DNA from: Brachypterus glaber
Lineage: Eukaryota > Arthropoda > Insecta > Coleoptera > Kateretidae
Direction: 5' to 3'
Length of the DNA: 64,000 nucleotides
Assembly: GCA_958510825.1 (NCBI GenBank)
Contig: OY294052.1
Coordinates: 1,695,816 to 1,759,815 of the forward strand
The notes under the pieces were generated by a model. That model made no database searches. It worked only from the letters and a program-made list of their open reading frames with translations, and was not told the origin of the DNA. Made by a program: the position numbers and the translations under genes. Shown piece after piece: positions 54,501-61,525 of the stretch (within the stretch, counting starts at the first letter, position 1; every line of letters begins with the position of its first letter).

Positions 54501-56057
54501 CTATTTATTTGGTTTGCCGGAAAGTGTAGCACTAAGCGGCACGAACGAACATAGCTAATGTGGATCTGTAGAATAAGATAATTCTACTAAAATTTAGATG
54601 GCGCCAGTAATTTCTTCAATAAAAATAATACTCTTCGCCCGGCCAAGTAAATATTGTATTTGTTCAACAAAGAACAAATACAGAATTTGTTTGGTTGGCT
54701 GGAAGTGGGAGTGTATGTATGTCTTCTATCCTTTTTGGGTAGAACTTTTTTCCCTGCCTAATCTAACGGGAGAAATCGCCAAAAGACGTCTACCCTATCT
54801 CTATCTCATTTGTGCTACACTTTCCAGCCAACCAAATAAATACTGTATTTGTTTTTCATACAACAAATACAGTATTTATTTGGTTTGCCGGAAAGTGTAG
54901 CACTAAGCGGCACGAACGAACAATGTGGATCTGTAGAATAAGATAATTCTACTAAAATTTAGATGGCGCCAGTAATTTCTTCAATAAAAATAATACTCTT
55001 CGCCCGGCCAAGTAAATATTGTATTTGTTCAACAAAGAACAAATACAGAATTTGTTTGGTTGGGTGGAAGTGGGAGTGTATGTATGTCTTCTATCCTTTT
55101 TGGGTAGAACTTTTGTCCCTGCCTAATCTAACGGGAGAAATCGCCATTACTACTCGACTACTTGATGGATGTGGTCCACGTCGAGTTCGAAAATAAAATA
55201 TGTTACCCTAAGAATAGGTCGTCATTTTTCATATTTTGGTGTTTCAAAAGCCCAGGTTTAGATAATATTTTAACGCAGAAGCCTGAATGATATTTTTTTA
55301 ATTAAAGGCGTTTTTTTGGATTTTAGATCTTTTTCTACACCTAAATATTCCCTGGCGCGGCCCTGCTCTTAGATATTGAGGGCTAATCTCTATAGAGACT
55401 AAGTCTTTAAACAAAAAGCCACATTTACTCAAAATCTCATCAAGTGACAAAAATTTTTACTGACATTTAATGCCATTAGCTAAATTTCATACGAAACTAA
55501 CCTTAAAAAATAATTATCCTTCAAGATTAATTTTTAAATGAAATTCACTATGTAAATAAATATATAAAAATTGTTATAACCTAGAATTATGAATGAAAAC
55601 AATCCACCGCCAGGACTTAAAGTGGTAAATAGTAAATAAAAAACTTTTAAATATTATTAATTATAATAATTATTATGGTCTGTTTCATCAAGCCCAGTAA
55701 ATATTTTCAAAACAGATTCGAATATTGGATGTGCGAATATACTGCGTAGTTTATTTTATAAAACATAACTATATTCTATACACAAACATATACTATTCAA
55801 ATCTGTTGTAAAAATACTTACTGTGCGATTTTTAATTTACTCTCTTGATTGATAGACCATAGTAATGTTATTGGCATGTCTGACATAATATTTAAGATAA
55901 GAATATTAAATAAAAGGAAAGTCTCAAGTTCAAATTCTGGATGTGGAAAAAACGTTTTTATTTATTACCCTTATCTCAAATATTATATCCGAAATGCTAA
56001 TAATCTCATTACTATTACAATTAATATTAAAAAAAACTTAAAAAAAAATATTATTAC

Positions 56058-56088
<31 letters not shown>

Positions 56089-57382
56089 TTAGATTTTAAG
56101 CTTTCACGGCCATTAAGATATAAAGAACTTTCACTTTCGGGTTTAGACCGTGTTAATGGATTTTCACTTTCCGACGTTTCGTCTCTTACTACTACTACTA
56201 GTGTCAGGCGCCGCAATGGGATCCCCATTATCACCCCCTGCGGCCAATGCTTTCATGGAATACTTCGAGAAAAAAGCTATTGAGTCATTTCCATTAAAAC
56301 CTAAAATTTGGCGCAGATACGTAGACGATGTCTATGCTATTTGGCCCCATGGCATGGAAAGCCTTCAAGGTTTTCTAAATCACCTCAATTCCCAACATAA
56401 ATCTATACGGTTTACGATGGAAATTGAGATAACGGATCACTTCCCTTTTTGGACGTTTTGGTTTACAAAACGGAAAATGGCTCAATAGGACACTCGGTAT
56501 ACAGGAAGAAAACCCACACTGACAGATACCTAAACGCATTTTCACATCACCATCCCTCTCAAAAACGCTCGGTAGTTAATTCACTTGTTCATAGGGCTTT
56601 CATGATTTCAGACAAGAATTCCCTAGACACAGAACTCCTTAAACTAACCAAAGCCTTGACCATGAACGGTTATACCAAAAAAGACATTAATAAGACCATA
56701 TACAAATACAGAAATCCCAGACCCAAACAACAGGACAATAGTGACAATGACAGACAGACACAAGTTATACTTCCCTATGTAAGCGGTATCACGGATAAAA
56801 TAGGTAAACTTTTGAAGAAGTCAAATATTAAGCCTATATTTCGGTCCAACCAAAAATTAGGTCAATGTTTGACTTCAACAAAAGACAAAATACCCCTGAG
56901 TTCAGAAGGCGTATATAAAATACCCTGCTCCTGTGGTACGGTTTACATAGGTGAAACTAAGAGAAAAATTTCTACAAGACTTCAAGAGCATGAGCGCAAT
57001 ATAAGAAAGAAACAAATTTCCTTATCGGCAGTAGCCGAACATGTACATGAAACAGGTCATAAAATCAATTTGTCTGAAACAAAACAAATATTAACAGAAA
57101 ACAGAAAAATGCCAAGGAAGATACGGGAATCGATAGAAATCATCAAGCATCCTAACAATATCAATCGGGACACTGGTTACCACTTACCTGCAATATGGAA
57201 GTCTTTGATAGGAAAAAGCTCGTCACGGGTGAATAACCACAACTCGTCATAAATAGTGACACAAGTTGATTCGAAACTTAGTTTCAGATTAATCCCTGAA
57301 GATGTCTCTGGTAGTAAGAGACGAAACGTCGGAAAGTGAAAATCCATTAACACGGTCTAAACCCGAAAGTGAAAGTTCTTTA

Positions 57383-57424
<42 letters not shown>

Positions 57425-60400
57425 GATTATTTATTTACTGACTAACTATATATTATAATTTTAGTATGTATTTACACCAGATGAAGTAAGAACCCTGGAA
57501 GAATGCGAATCTGAGAGCTTTTACCAACGGTGTCTACCACTTCAGTTTATTTTTGGATTTGGTACTTATTACGGAATACGATCAGGTTTGCATTTTATTG
57601 TTTTACTTAACAGATACAAAGAAAAACAGTAAAGTAATAAATACCAATGGTGGCGATATAAATAAAAAATGAGTGCATGCATCGCTTAAAATAAAAGTAA
57701 AAACTTCAGCTTTTACACAGGATGTCAATAAAATCTTCTGTCAAATGGAAACTCCCATATACTAGACTTGATTTTGAGTCAATTTAACCTAAATTATCTT
57801 AATCCAAAAATGCATTTTAAAGATTGCACCACGTCATTTTTTTTAAATGGCAGGAGTTTTCTGATACCCTGTATATTTTTCTGAAATTAAATCCTGCCTT
57901 ACTGTTTCAGGGCATTTATCAGCGAACAGACGTTTTGGAGCAATTCCAAAGGTAACTCTAGCCGTAATATTGGGTTATTTTCTTGGAAAACTGTCCTATG
58001 TACGAACATGTGAGGAAAAACTAATGCAGCTCCCAAACAGTCCACTAGGTCAAATGATAAGAGAAAAACGAAGAGGGTACTAGTAGGGACACTAGATTAT
58101 TTAAGGGGTTATAAACCTTCTGGCTCGGGAAAATTATTGGAAAGTTCGGAAAATTGTGGAAACCATGGCCCTTGCCCCGAAACGATTTTTTGCGGTGACC
58201 ACGATTTCTCAAAAACCGGTCAATCTGAAATGTTTAGGTGTGGTTCCTAATTACAACAGCTTGTTTGTGAACGAAGGGATTTTTATTTGAACGAAAATTT
58301 CTACTTTTTTCGGCCGGAAAAGTCAATATTTGGAACATCAAAAATCGTTTTTTTGGGAAAATCATCGCCATTTTCATATTTTTTTTGCGAAACACTTCAT
58401 TCATGAACTAGATATTGTAATTAGGAATAACACCTAAAAATGTCAGATTAATCGGTAAATTGGTTTTCGAGAAATCGTGGTCATCGCAAAAAAACGGCGT
58501 TTCGGGGCAAGGGTCATGGTTTTCACAATTTTCCGAATTTTCTAATAAAAAAATTTTCACAAACAAATCAAAATATATTGTTTGATATTTTGTAGGTCGT
58601 TCGAATAAAGTTGTGATTACATAACTGAAAAAAATCAATAAAAACCCTTAATTTTCCCGAGCCAGAAGATATATAACCCCTTAAGTCTAGTTCACTTTCC
58701 ACTTGTCTAGTGTCCTTAGGTACTAGAAGAATTTCCTTCTGATTAAATAATTTCATAAATAATTTTAAAATATTAATTTATTTGTGAATTATTTCAAATA
58801 CTTGACTATAACAATATTTATATAATTATCTATTAAATTTTTTTTATAAGTTGTGTTTTTTTTATTTTTTAATTGATTACAAAGTACCACAAAAAAAATC
58901 AGTTTTTTAGGAACCAGACTATATTTGTTCTACGTATTTAGGGGCGCTGAAAACGAATATGGCAATAAAAAAATTCTTGACCCTCAAAATCTTGAGATAT
59001 AGCACACAATGGTTTTTTTGAATGCATTCGGGGCAAAAAAATAAATCCGCAAGAATTCATCAAATTTTTTTTATGAAAATATGCCATTACTTGCAGATTT
59101 TAAATATCTAGTTAATTTTTTACAGGGCCTCAAATTCCAAATATGGCAATTTTTTCGCGTTTTTTGAATTATATTATTAAAAATTTTATATAAAAAATAC
59201 AGATGCAGCCAAAAATTTATACATGTAATACTTTTCATGAAAAATGAATGGCAAAGGCGTTAAATTGCAATAATAATAAAAAACATCCTACACAGAAAAA
59301 AAAAGGATTCTTTGAACTAAGTACACGTGCTTTTCATTGAAGGGCATTTATTTTGGTTTAAAGGAAAGCTAGCCTTGAAACAAGAGAATTTGGTTTTGAA
59401 CATATCGTGTCCTTGGTTTAATGAATCTTTTTTTTGTGTATGAAGGGGCATAGTGGAATTGAAACACTGTACCAGCTATACGTAATAGTAAATAGTTTTT
59501 CAATTTTCATTTAATAGATTCTATCTATTGTAATCCAATCACATTAAAATTGTCCTTTTCTAAAATATAAATTACGTTCTGAACATATTGAATTCTCTTT
59601 AATCCCTCGGAGATTACAATTCGTTTTATTTCAGTTAAATTCCACTGTCTGGAATTATTCCACTGGAATATCAAAATATTTGCCGAGGTATTAAAAAATT
59701 CATAACTGCTCCGGAAAAATCTCATTGCTGAATAAAAGCGAATTTAATAAAATATTAATTAGTTTTTAGAAATGGTTTTTAATATTGAATGTATCAAGAA
59801 AAATCGGAGAAATACACGGTGTATTTTTATTAGGGTTAGTAAGGTGTAATTTGACATTAGAAAATATGACAAAAAGTTCCTACAAACATATGTCTAAAAA
59901 TTCGTTGTAAGGGAGCTAAGCCCCTATGAAAGTGGCTAAAAAATTCGGCGTTTATTTAATAACTCAGGAACCCTTTGAGATATATCACGAAGTTTTACAA
60001 GTAAACTATTTCTGATAAGACCCATCTTCATATGTTGTTTTCATGTATTTATTTTAACTAGAGGCGTGCGAAACGGGGGGCCTTATCAATTTCTTGTCCC
60101 AAAAACCGCTTTTAAAGGTAGATACTATGACCCTTTAAAGATGGTGCATTTTTAGGACACCATATGGGATTGATTTTTGGAAGTACCTGTGTATCAGATT
60201 TTTTTCTTATTTTTGATGTACATCTTACAGTAAGTTACTTACCCAATCCAAAATCGGTCCAATGTTCGATAAGACTCCAGTGTATACTTTTTGAGGCCCG
60301 ATTTTTTACAGTTAGTAACTGACATAAGTCGCTGGTACACAAGTTTCTTTCCACAACTACGGACTGGAAACTTCCATCGTCATTGTAGAATACTAGTTCC

Positions 60401-61525
60401 TCCTGAAACAATCACAAAAGTTTCTTAATTGCAAATTATAGTTTTTGTTTTGTGATATACACCCTGATTTATTAGCCGCTCTGCAATAACAAGTAGATTT
60501 AATTTCCTGAAGAAATGTTCATATAAACGTAGGTCCTATCTTTCTTCGTTCAAAAGTTTTAAAATTTTAAGTTAAAAAAGAACGTAGTAGCCATGATTTA
60601 GAAAAACCAAATTTGGTAACTATCATTTTAAATAATCACCTTTCAAAAATAGTTTGTCTATGTCAATGGTCAGCGCTACATTTAGATTAGATAAAGAAAG
60701 AAGTTCTACAGCGGAAGACGAAAGTTTAATTATTATTTTTCGCAGAAACGAACCATCTCACATAAAATTATAATTTTGTAATAATTATTTATACATATGT
60801 AAGAATTTCAAATTTGAAAATTTGTGGGATGGTTCCTTTCTGCATAAAGCCATCCAGTTTTCAATCATCTATGCATGCATTAAATCGTCATTCACATGTC
60901 CAAGGGTTAATTGGTCAACTGACACAATAATTAAATACATCAACCTTACTATTATTCGAAGGACATTTATAGATTATAGAATTTAAACTGATAAGCCAAA
61001 TTTAAAGATAATTTTTTTAAATACGGGATAACCTTTTACTTGTGCAATTTTTTAAAGAAAATAGCTAAAAGAAGGATATCGTCTTAAATGAGAGTCCAAA
61101 CTCCATAATCGTACTGAAACTTAAGAACGATACCCTCCTTTGGCATTTTTTGCCGAAAAATAGATTTTTTAGAAAGGCCGGGTATAGACGTACATGTAGT
61201 ACATCTAGTGGTTCGCCCCTCTGTCTGTCCAACTAAATCATAACTTCAGAACGCTTTGAACTAAAGGCTTTATTACAAAAATTGGTACATAGGTTTCTTA
61301 TCAAAAGTTCTCAGATCGGTTTCTTTTTGGAAAAAATATAAATTGGGTATAGAAACTTTTTTTGAAATGTTTGATTTAAATAATTTTGTTTAATTACCTC
61401 TTTTTCATTAGTGGTAGCGTCTTTATTCTCCCCATCGTTACTCTGATTGTCAAGGCCTTCCTGAAGACGTTCATATCGTGAAGATTCTGAACACACACAT
61501 TTCATTATCGGAAAACGACACCACG
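45329..61525 (-). CDS. GRB14: GRB7/10/14-family adaptor (partial, 5 exons recovered)
   Basis: Minus-strand exons 61398-61525, 60243-60402, 51632-51762, 48293-48367 and 45329-45508 join in phase to give 218 aa from the first ATG. This family carries RA, PH, BPS and SH2 domains and docks on activated receptor tyrosine kinases. Visible evidence: an RA-domain exon ending WSLIEHWTDFGLG, continued as ER-LLEDHE in the next exon, exactly as in GRB7/10/14. The linker FKFIFRKDFRKYEFFHNPE then QFFPTDML follows, and then a PH domain start with KQSWSKGFLLLRDRTVYITYK. Every junction has GT-AG sites and matching phase. The second half of PH, the BPS region and SH2 were not found and should lie at lower coordinates, possibly beyond this window. 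MRL proteins (RIAM/lamellipodin) share RA-PH but fit the linker less well. The assignment to GRB14 within the family is by general insect naming. Confidence 0.85.
46152..46595 (+). mobile_element. Family C MITE with internal duplication
   Basis: A stretch of about 110 bp (TTTTCGAGAGGGC... to ...TTTACAAGAAAAT) occurs twice in tandem, making this copy longer than the others. Confidence 0.85.
46945..47222. mobile_element. Mariner-like-ended element filled with an ACAATC minisatellite
   Basis: TACGAGGGGTTTATTTATTG at left and CAATAAATAAAACCCTCGA at right. Between them about 20 degenerate units of the type ACAATCTTTC / ACAATCCTCC. Lies in intron 4 of the adaptor gene. Confidence 0.65.
47453..47789 (-). 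mobile_element. Family C MITE (minus)
   Basis: TTTATCCAATACATACAG to CCATAAATAACTATT, with the complete ACCTGCTTGGCTGACGCC hairpin. Confidence 0.87.
48293..48367 (-). CDS. GRB14: GRB-type adaptor: short linker exon
   Basis: A 75-nt phase 0-0 exon (TTATTACAG|CAA to CAT|GTATGT) encoding QFFPTDMLDMETEMENANMI and a short remainder. FFP..M directly after KYEFF..P is the known order in GRB7/10/14. Confidence 0.82.
48450..48602. mobile_element. Family H MITE
   Basis: TATGGAAACGTTCAAGTATT to AATACTTGAACTTTCCCTA with a G-run centre, in intron 3 of the adaptor gene. Confidence 0.8.
49136..49265. mobile_element. Palindromic family H fragment
   Basis: Right arm of the 33209-33450 type: AATAACGCGAGAACCGGGG then TGAAGTGTATGAATTTTGG. 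Confidence 0.75.
50479..51359 (+). mobile_element. Family C MITE interrupted by family M
   Basis: AATAGTTATTTATGG to GTATTGGATAAA, split after GTTATTAT by a 535-bp element. Confidence 0.9.
50756..51290. mobile_element. Family M: MITE whose long TIRs are tandem arrays
   Basis: GGCAGACTAACATCTCTACT to its complement, exact 8-bp duplication GTTATTAT (50748-50755, 51291-51298). Each TIR of about 125 bp is a run of units such as CTCCATAACATCC and CTCCGTAACAACT. No coding interior. Confidence 0.9.
51632..51762 (-). CDS. GRB14: GRB-type adaptor: RA-PH linker exon
   Basis: The acceptor TTTTTTCAG|AA supplies the two bases that complete Glu after the phase-1 RA exon, giving GLERLLEDHE. The exon continues to FKFIFRKDFRKYEFFHNPE and a GAG|GTATGT donor, phase 0. 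The match to the GRB family at this joint is the strongest single proof of the gene model. Confidence 0.9.
52005..52190. mobile_element. Family I fragment
   Basis: ATGTATCACACGACTTCCC to GGTTCAAAAGTTGAAGGG, a diverged arm. Confidence 0.6.
52661..52940. mobile_element. Family R MITE
   Basis: TATACCGGATGACAC to GTGACACCCGGTATA, arms of about 45 bp including AATGTACACCCC, interior CTTCCGGTAAAACCGGAAG. Confidence 0.8.
52941..54377. other. No gene recognised
   Basis: A 112-codon frame at 53674-54012 (no ATG, starts TTG) reads partly protein-like (AEEYYAFTLDLKKRK) but overlaps another open frame and has no known domain. Confidence 0.35.
54378..55148 (-). mobile_element. Two family B MITEs in direct tandem
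   Basis: Copy 1 is 54378-54780 and copy 2 is 54781-55148. Copy 2 lacks the first 40 or so bp and starts at AAAAGACGTCTACCC. The two are almost identical, so the duplication looks recent. Confidence 0.87.
55589..55624 (+). CDS. OCIAD1: OCIA-domain gene exon 1
   Basis: A 36-nt first coding exon, ATG to a GTG|GTAAAT donor in phase 0, encoding MNENNPPPGLKV. It joins in frame to exon 2 (YVFTPDE). Support comes from phase and the Pro-rich start common before OCIA domains. Being so short, it is less certain than the other exons. Confidence 0.65.
55589..58083 (+). CDS. OCIAD1: OCIA-domain protein, asrij/OCIAD1-like (3 exons)
   Basis: Joined from 55589-55624, 57465-57585 and 57911-58083, giving 109 aa. 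OCIA-domain proteins are small membrane proteins of endosomes and mitochondria. Drosophila asrij and vertebrate OCIAD1 affect JAK/STAT and Notch signalling, and OCIAD1/2 affect complex III assembly. Visible evidence: after a short Pro-rich start the protein has the family pattern FTPDEVRTLEECESESFYQR, a hydrophobic glycine-containing stretch, then FGAIPKVTLAVILGYFLGKL and SYVRTCEEK, the end of the OCIA core. NSPLG after the core also matches OCIAD1. The C-terminal tail is much shorter than in vertebrate OCIAD1. The gene sits antisense inside an intron of the GRB-type gene. Intron 1 carries a foldback element and a Penelope-like element. A hAT-like MITE abuts the stop codon. OCIAD2 is the main alternative name. 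Confidence 0.88.
55674..55862. mobile_element. Foldback element (family O) in OCIA intron 1
   Basis: Begins TATGGTCTGTTTCATCAAG and ends with the inverted form. A copy with longer arms is at 20911-21386. It lies 49 bp after the exon 1 donor. Confidence 0.7.
56055..56092. repeat. (ATT)n left of Penelope element
   Basis: A run of ATT units about 30 bp upstream of the element arm. Confidence 0.9.
56207..56488 (+). pseudogene. Penelope-like RT fragment
   Basis: The fragment reads AMGSPLSPPAANAFMEYF and then RRYVDDVYAIW, where YVDD is the RT catalytic box. It lacks the upstream RT motifs. Near 56446-56450 (a run of five T) the frame shifts and the sequence continues in another frame as DVLVYKTENG, so this part is a broken gene. 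The element family is transposable and unrelated to any host function. Confidence 0.8.
56449..57252 (+). CDS. Penelope-like connector and GIY-YIG endonuclease
   Basis: An open frame of 267 codons. Residues 1-150 are the Penelope linker (VVNSLVHRAFMISD, a Lys-rich region). Residues about 154-245 form a GIY-YIG domain: GVYKIPCSCGTVYIGETKRK, then R..EHERNI and AEHVHETGH. The GVY/YIG pair and the following Arg, His and Glu positions look intact. It is the 3' part of a truncated element, and expression as a separate protein is unlikely. Confidence 0.8.
   Translation: MDVLVYKTENGSIGHSVYRKKTHTDRYLNAFSHHHPSQKRSVVNSLVHRAFMISDKNSLDTELLKLTKALTMNGYTKKDINKTIYKYRNPRPKQQDNSDNDRQTQVILPYVSGITDKIGKLLKKSNIKPIFRSNQKLGQCLTSTKDKIPLSSEGVYKIPCSCGTVYIGETKRKISTRLQEHERNIRKKQISLSAVAEHVHETGHKINLSETKQILTENRKMPRKIRESIEIIKHPNNINRDTGYHLPAIWKSLIGKSSSRVNNHNSS
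57296..57330 (+). ncRNA. Hammerhead-ribozyme-like motif in Penelope terminus
   Basis: CTGAAGA and GAAACGTC boxes flank a six-base-pair stem (GTCTCT with AGAGAC, loop GGTAGTA). Penelope termini are known to carry minimal hammerhead motifs. One extra T between the first box and the stem departs from the canonical core, so activity is uncertain. Confidence 0.45.
57383..57423. repeat. (ATT)n right of Penelope element
   Basis: About 13 ATT units directly after the terminal arm. Confidence 0.9.
57465..57585 (+). CDS. OCIAD1: OCIA-domain gene exon 2
   Basis: The acceptor is ATTTTAG|TAT and the donor G|GTTTGC (phase 1). The exon encodes the first half of the OCIA domain, with the conserved EC..ES motif and an aromatic/glycine hydrophobic stretch. 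Confidence 0.88.
57911..58083 (+). CDS. OCIAD1: OCIA-domain gene exon 3 (terminal)
   Basis: The acceptor is ACTGTTTCAG|GG. The exon encodes the second hydrophobic segment (VTLAVILGYFLGKL) and a basic end, stopping at TAG 58081-58083. The stop is part of GGTACTAG, which is repeated after the adjacent MITE, so the same stop existed before the insertion. Confidence 0.9.
58084..58718. mobile_element. hAT-like MITE abutting the OCIA stop codon
   Basis: A 635-bp element starting TAGGGACACTAG, ending CTAGTGTCCTTA, with long inverted arms. It is flanked by an exact 8-bp target duplication GGTACTAG (58076-58083 and 58719-58726). Termini fit the hAT pattern YARNG. The element should form most of the OCIA 3' UTR; it contains AATAAA at 58604 in gene orientation. 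Confidence 0.85.
59292..59440. mobile_element. Family A MITE, short form
   Basis: ACACAGAAAAAAAAAGGATT to TTTTTTTGTGTA with deletions in the middle, in intron 2 of the adaptor gene. Confidence 0.75.
60243..60402 (-). CDS. GRB14: GRB-type adaptor: Ras-association (RA) domain exon
   Basis: The acceptor is TTGTTTCAG|GAG and the donor GG|GTAAGT, a full consensus site in phase 1. The 53 codons encode LVFYNDDGSFQSVVVERN, then DLCQLLTVKN and HWSLIEHWTDFGL, the RA ubiquitin-like fold of GRB7/10/14 proteins that binds Ras-family GTPases. Confidence 0.88.
61398..61525 (-). CDS. GRB14: GRB-type adaptor: N-terminal exon
   Basis: Bounded by a strong minus-strand acceptor (T-rich tract, TTACAG|CG) and a GAG|GTAATT donor, phase 0. 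ATG is at 61505-61503; 36 codons follow, starting MKCVCSESSRYERLQEG and ending in an acidic/Asn-rich stretch. The frame is also open upstream of the ATG to the acceptor, so an earlier coding exon is possible. Confidence 0.65.

What the first reader, a model, noticed from the sequence alone, without database searches (positions are those of the whole stretch)
58076..58726. hAT-like MITE inserted exactly at a stop codon, which the target duplication preserved
The 8-bp duplication GGTACTAG contains the OCIA codons for Tyr and stop. The left copy keeps the reading frame and stop intact, and the right copy carries the pre-insertion 3' UTR. The whole 635-bp foldback element should therefore be the start of the 3' UTR, and it brings an AATAAA in sense (58604). 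Insertion one step upstream would have changed the protein.
Basis: partly seen in the sequence, partly recalled or inferred. Interest (0 to 1): 0.75.

Follow-up and report, generated by a model that had tools for sequence, protein, structure and literature searches.

The report
Nested mini-transposons after a stop codon
A tiny transposon sits directly behind the stop codon of a short gene and was itself later split by a second, larger transposon; the protein is unchanged and the arrangement is ordinary, though it probably gave the gene a long hairpin in its untranslated tail.

Summary
The 8-bp duplication GGTACTAG (58076-58083 / 58719-58726), the terminal repeats and the Tyr-stop codons inside the duplication are real. 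The interpretation needs correcting: the 635 bp is not one hAT-like foldback but two elements. The outer is a 55-bp hAT-like mini-MITE (58084-58104 + 58685-58718) from an abundant family of near-palindromes; in a sample of 20 copies, 12 have 8-bp duplications with at most one mismatch. The inner is a 584-bp foldback (58101-58684) from a separate TTAA-targeting family, and it entered the TTAA of the outer element. Relatives of the outer read through that TTAA; relatives of the inner end at it.

The stop predates both insertions, since both target copies carry it. Keeping it follows from insertion geometry and survivorship. Insertion 1 or 2 bases upstream would have extended the protein; 3 bases upstream would not, because the element itself begins with TAG. 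The gene reads as an intact 109-aa OCIA protein, one of two OCIA loci in this genome. No RNA data or sister-species sequence was available, so the 3' UTR effect is inferred. New member of a known kind, low interest.

The parts
55589..55624 (+). Putative OCIA gene exon 1 (MNENNPPPGLKV)
   Evidence: Start codon, in-frame donor GTAAAT and open join to exon 2; predicted by eye, no transcript
57465..57585 (+). OCIA exon 2
   Evidence: OCIA Pfam match for the joined protein, 125.1 bits; same acceptor position as the paralogue on C2
57911..58083 (+). OCIA exon 3, coding part, ending GGG TAC TAG; frame of 109 aa
   Evidence: 62% identity to the C2 paralogue over residues 46-108
58076..58083 (+). Left copy of the 8-bp target duplication GGTACTAG, including the stop codon
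58084..58100 (+). Left part of the outer 55-bp hAT-like mini-MITE, terminal repeat TAGGGACACTAGA
   Evidence: 248 places within one mismatch of TAGGGACACTAGATTA, 3 for the reversed control; relatives
58101..58104 (+). TTAA, left copy of the inner element's target (part of the outer element before the second insertion)
58105..58680 (+). Body of the inner foldback element (584 bp counting both TTAA); its left arm lacks about 105 bp present in full copies
58544..58642 (+). Three sense AATAAA hexamers (58544, 58604, 58637) in the inner element
   Evidence: 0.75 expected from base composition alone in the 635 bp
58681..58684 (+). TTAA, right copy of the inner element's target
58685..58718 (+). Right part of the outer mini-MITE, ending TCTAGTGTCCTTA
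58719..58726 (+). Right copy of the 8-bp target duplication GGTACTAG, followed by the pre-insertion flank AAGAATTT

Best explanation
A nested pair of non-autonomous DNA transposons lies directly behind the stop codon of a short OCIA-domain gene. Step 1 (shown by anatomy): a 55-bp hAT-like mini-MITE inserted into the 8-bp site GGTACTAG that spans the last two codons, so that the left copy kept Tyr-stop and the right copy the old flank. Step 2 (shown by comparison with relatives): a roughly 700-bp TTAA-targeting foldback element entered the TTAA inside that mini-MITE; this copy now measures 584 bp after loss of about 105 bp of one arm (whether the loss came before or after insertion is unknown). 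Step 3 (inferred): the protein never changed, the 635 bp became the start of the 3' UTR, and transcripts either end early at one of the three AATAAA of the inner element or carry the long hairpin to the older signals beyond 58726. No special targeting of stop codons is needed; an insertion that kept the frame is the kind that survives.
For: 8-bp duplication and 12-of-13 terminal repeats. Outer family: 291 places fit GGACACTAGA-N(18-48)-TCTAGTGTCC, reversed control 0; of 20 copies fetched, the 8 bp on both sides agree exactly in 8, with at most 1 mismatch in 12 and at most 2 in 15; cross-paired control 0 exact and 2 within two mismatches of 380. L055 is an uninterrupted 55-bp relative that aligns without gaps across the TTAA, 47 of 55 identical (counted by eye); of 6 relatives aligned, 4 keep an unbroken TTAA there, L054 reads TAAA, L053 lacks those columns, and none has an insertion. 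Inner family: apart from the locus itself, none of the other listed matches reaches below query base 16 or beyond 617, that is at most 10 and 8 bases into the outer element; 408 places match its end TTAAGGGGTTATATACCTACTGGCTCG within 3 mismatches, reversed control 0; of 7 other copies examined, 5 had both ends recognised, 4 of these begin TTAA and one CTAA, all 5 end TTAA, each with different flanks. The inner copy is 85.2-86.2% identical to those 5, which are 82.5-88.7% identical to each other, so it looks about as old as they are. RNA fold of the 635 nt -283.9 kcal/mol against -135.2 +/- 8.5 for 20 shuffles.
Against: No transcript data, so the 3' UTR status and the polyadenylation site are not shown. 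No orthologous empty site could be examined; the evidence for the outer insertion is the duplication itself. The best outer relatives L055 and L054 have no recognisable 8-bp duplication themselves, and 5 of the 20 sampled copies have 3 or more mismatches. No autonomous partner was found for either family: 2 of 30 hAT-domain loci held an unpaired end-like word, and no compared piggyBac-domain place lay within 26 kb of a compared inner end (a partial comparison). The insertion junction creates a new GT (58083-58084) inside the stop codon, so aberrant splicing is not excluded.
Confidence: 0.88

Rival explanations
1. One 635-bp hAT-like foldback MITE: outer ends and foldback arms belong to one family and inserted together.
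For: Outer duplication and ends frame the whole foldback, and the predicted fold pairs both layers continuously.
Against: Relatives of the foldback end at TTAA and have other flanks; relatives of the outer element read through the TTAA without an insert; (40 of 772 candidates scored) no second copy of the composite was listed.
Confidence: 0.03
2. The composite formed elsewhere and moved as one 635-bp hAT-like unit into the OCIA gene.
For: The outer ends are intact, so a hAT transposase could in principle have moved the loaded element.
Against: One search lists only this place for the full length; but cut-and-paste need not leave a donor copy and one search scored a part of its candidates, so this is weak evidence.
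Confidence: 0.1
3. The OCIA frame does not really end here: the ancestral gene spliced from GG/GTACTA to further exons, and the TAG was intronic.
For: A GT stands at 58077-58078. The C2 paralogue continues past the same point (RRRG then QLKERK and a donor-like GTAGAG) and has further exon-like open stretches ending NKYGDSFE.
Against: The site AGG/GTACTA is a poor donor by the usual consensus (recalled). Two C-terminal peptides of the paralogue have no convincing match in the window or the next 19,985 bases (best E 0.80), and no KYGD-like motif was printed for the window or for the + strand of that stretch.
Confidence: 0.08
4. The locus is a decaying OCIA pseudogene, so the insertion at the stop was free of constraint.
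For: Truncated relative to the paralogue, with at least three mobile-element insertions in or just after the gene counting the Penelope-like stretch in intron 1; no expression data.
Against: Open frame of 109 aa with canonical splice ends; full OCIA domain at 125 bits; differences from the paralogue over 95 codons are 29, 16 and 38 at codon positions 1, 2 and 3, which fits constraint over most of the time since duplication but does not exclude recent decay.
Confidence: 0.15

Closest known systems
hAT-derived MITEs of insects (for example the hAT MITEs of Helicoverpa armigera, PMC9033116 Table 1, passage seen)
   Same: 8-bp target duplications, short terminal repeats, no coding capacity, sizes reported there from 56 bp
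   Different: The outer element here is 55 bp and mostly inverted repeat; no transposase with its ends was found in this genome
TTAA-duplicating MITEs (piggyBac MITEs of 50-800 bp, same table; Kolobok and Sola3 also use TTAA, recalled)
   Same: TTAA at both ends, long inverted-repeat arms, about 700 bp
   Different: Superfamily not established; its end GGGGTTATATACC was not seen near a piggyBac-domain place in the partial comparison
BuT2 and related hAT transposons of Drosophila (PMC3942097, passages seen)
   Same: 8-bp duplications, 12-bp terminal repeats, short internally deleted derivatives, and one copy interrupted by another transposon
   Different: 2.8-kb autonomous element; no sequence comparison with it was made here
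OCIAD2 of vertebrates (PMC5943604, passages seen)
   Same: A second, shorter OCIA protein with a short C-terminal region beside a longer one

Membership tests
hAT-type MITE (outer element) | 8-bp target site duplication | tested here: met
   Exact here; 8 of 20 sampled relatives exact, 12 within one mismatch, 15 within two; control 0 exact and 2 within two mismatches of 380
hAT-type MITE (outer element) | Short terminal inverted repeats of hAT form (YARGG...) | tested here: met
   TAGGGACACTAGA / TAAGGACACTAGA, 12 of 13; the form YARGG is recalled
hAT-type MITE (outer element) | Shares ends with an autonomous hAT transposon in the genome | tested here: inconclusive
   44 hAT dimerisation-domain matches; 30 cut out and scanned, 2 of 30 with an unpaired end-like word
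TTAA-type MITE (inner element) | TTAA target, duplicated on insertion | tested here: met
   TTAA on both sides here and one unbroken TTAA in 4 of 6 aligned relatives of the host element; 4 of 5 fully recognised copies TTAA at the left, 5 of 5 at the right. A TA duplication within TTAA would look the same
piggyBac-derived MITE (inner element) | Ends shared with a piggyBac transposon of the genome | tested here: inconclusive
   117 piggyBac-domain matches; 64 places compared with 96 of the 100 listed (408 in all) inner-end places: nearest 26,995 bp apart
OCIA-domain protein | PF07051 over its cut-off | tested here: met
   125.1 bits, cut-off 25, profile 2-87 of 87

The most novel reading that the evidence does not exclude
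The nested insertion gave a short, second OCIA gene a new regulatory 3' UTR: a 635-nt near-perfect hairpin carrying three AATAAA, so that the choice between early polyadenylation inside the insert and read-through into a double-stranded tail (open to Dicer or ADAR) sets the level of the short OCIA protein.
Probability: 0.08. Interest if true: 0.45.

Novelty: new member of a known kind. Interest (0 to 1): 0.18.

Why it matters
It is a clear worked case of how a transposon boundary can be misread: duplication and outer ends frame a much larger, unrelated second element, and only comparison with other copies separates them. It also shows that a target duplication covering a stop codon is neutral by geometry, and that a TAG-starting terminal repeat can itself supply a stop in one frame in three. 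If the insert is transcribed, the gene is a natural test of how a long hairpin 3' UTR affects expression.

Tried and rejected
A single 635-bp hAT MITE: rejected on the ends of the relatives. Finding orthologues of the OCIA protein: the protein search gave 1 candidate and none at E <= 0.001, so length in other species could not be compared. Finding C-terminal exons downstream: nothing convincing. Finding autonomous partners: inconclusive. Literature: searches gave general TE or OCIA papers; others (piggyBac, MITEs, nested insertion, TTAA, hAT; a phrase on a retained stop codon) gave 0 papers; these searches cover only the held open-access library and do not show that no such case is in print.

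Full report
What was checked. The sequence at 58076-58726 was read directly. GGTACTAG stands at 58076-58083 and again at 58719-58726; the duplication is exactly 8 bp, because the bases before and after it differ on the two sides. Between the copies lie 635 bp with ends TAGGGACACTAGA and, reverse-complemented, TAAGGACACTAGA. An 8-bp identity has a chance of 4.6e-5 at local composition. The OCIA frame ends GGG TAC TAG within the left copy.

The gene. Exons 55589-55624, 57465-57585 and 57911-58083 join to an open frame of 109 aa (exon 1 was found by eye) with a full OCIA domain, PF07051, 125.1 bits. The genome search finds four exon-level OCIA matches, two here and two at C2:16084330-16085150. 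The C2 paralogue is 62% identical over residues 46-108 and 50% over 13-56, with an acceptor at the same place before exon 2. It goes on past the point where our gene stops (RRRG, then QLKERK and GTAGAG) and has further open stretches including one that ends NKYGDSFE before a stop. Two peptides from those stretches have no convincing match in the window or the 19,985 bases after it (best E 0.80). So the short gene appears to end at TAG, and since both target copies hold the TAG, it did so before the insertion. One published study, of which I saw passages only, says invertebrates have one OCIA gene copy (PMC5943604); two loci here would be an exception if this genome is an invertebrate's, which I infer but did not establish.

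Two elements, not one. A search of the own genome with the 651-bp stretch gives 110 matches, from 40 of 772 candidates scored. Only the locus itself covers the whole query. Every other listed match lies within query 16-617, while the foldback proper is 26-609 (58101-58684). In the copies cut out, the sequence begins TTAAGGGGTTATA and ends TATAACCCCTTAA, next to unrelated flanks. Of 7 other copies, 5 had both ends recognised by the script; lengths are 640, 712, 700, 691 and 708 bp; 4 begin TTAA and one CTAA, all 5 end TTAA; in L005 and L006 the right end was not recognised. The end word has 408 places within 3 mismatches, 0 in the reversed control. Our copy is 584 bp and lacks about 105 bp of its left arm (its bases 30-584 align to 135-712 of L003). 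It is 85.2-86.2% identical to the five others, which are 82.5-88.7% identical among themselves.

The outer element. Without the inner one it is 55 bp. Its end word TAGGGACACTAGATTA has 248 places within one mismatch, against 3 for the reversed control. The pattern GGACACTAGA-N(18-48)-TCTAGTGTCC, a complete mini-element, has 291 places and 0 in the control. I fetched 20 copies, all from contigs C1 and C2 and chosen from the listed places; their cores of 41-117 bp make elements of about 47-123 bp. The flanking 8 bp agree exactly in 8 of 20, within one mismatch in 12 and within two in 15; pairing left and right flanks of different copies gives 0 exact and 2 within two mismatches of 380. In addition L035, 72 bp, has CTCCTTAG on both sides. 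The specific right end of our copy has 7 places including itself, 0 in control. L055 aligns to the joined 55 bp without gaps, 47 of 55 identical by my count. Of 6 relatives aligned, 4 (L055, L089, L010, L057) have an unbroken TTAA at the junction, L054 reads TAAA, L053 lacks the columns. L055 and L054 show no clear 8-bp duplication of their own. The inner element therefore entered a TTAA of the outer one. A TA duplication inside TTAA could not be told apart by sequence.

What the insertion does. A script placed the present element at neighbouring positions. Shifts of 0 to +6 leave 109 aa; -1 gives 119 aa, -2 gives 164 aa, -3 gives 109 aa again, -4 gives 118 aa, -6 gives 108 aa. The reason is that the element starts with TAG, so one frame in three stops at once. 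The lengths for shifts of -1 and -2 hold for the composite; with the original 55-bp element they would differ. Keeping the stop needs no mechanism beyond the placement of the 8-bp target.

The tail. AATAAA stands at 58544, 58604 and 58637 in the insert, 0.75 expected from base composition, and once on the other strand; ATTAAA stands at 58742 and 58832, AATAAA at 58964, beyond the insert. The insert folds to -283.9 kcal/mol, z -17.6 against 20 shuffles, as any foldback would. The junction creates a GT at 58083-58084 inside the stop codon. Whether any of this is used needs RNA.

Families. The outer element fits hAT by duplication length and ends; an autonomous partner was not found (30 of 44 hAT-domain matches scanned). 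The inner element is of a TTAA kind; piggyBac domains are present (117 matches) but none of 64 places compared lay within 26 kb of 96 inner-end places, and these lists are partial. MITEs of both kinds and sizes are described in insects (Helicoverpa, PMC9033116 Table 1, passages; BuT2 in Drosophila, PMC3942097, passages). Nested transposons and TE-derived 3' UTRs are ordinary (general knowledge).

Verdict. A real, well-dated example of an ordinary thing: a nested pair of MITEs whose outer target site happened to include a stop codon. The relative order is shown, the transcript consequences are inferred.

Noticed in passing
window 55589-58083 and G000:C2:16084330-16085150 (L050): Two OCIA-domain loci in one genome that looks invertebrate, a short one (109 aa) and an apparently longer one; a 2018 paper (PMC5943604, passages) states that invertebrates have one copy.
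   Followed up: partly
window 56150-57385: Reverse-transcriptase fragment (RVT_1, 20.2 bits, below the cut-off of 29.6) followed by a reading frame that by eye looks like a Penelope-like GIY-YIG end, flanked by inverted copies of AACTTTCACTTTCGGG-like sequence, in OCIA intron 1.
   Followed up: partly
window 60238-60402, minus strand: Exon-like stretch with a weak RA_2 match (23.5 bits, below the cut-off of 27), perhaps a Raph1/MIG-10-type gene converging on the OCIA gene.
   Followed up: partly
window 58083-58084: The insertion junction creates a GT (TA/GTAGGG) within the stop codon, a potential new splice donor absent from the empty site.
   Followed up: no
G000:C17:24412922-24414508: Four perfect copies of the inner element's end word at a regular spacing of 520 bp, suggesting a tandem array grown from the foldback family.
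   Followed up: no
G000:C1:7162835-7162900 and many like it: A 66-bp core that is a perfect palindrome (72 bp with its ends) recurs many times among the 291 mini-element places, a very short apparently mobile unit.
   Followed up: partly
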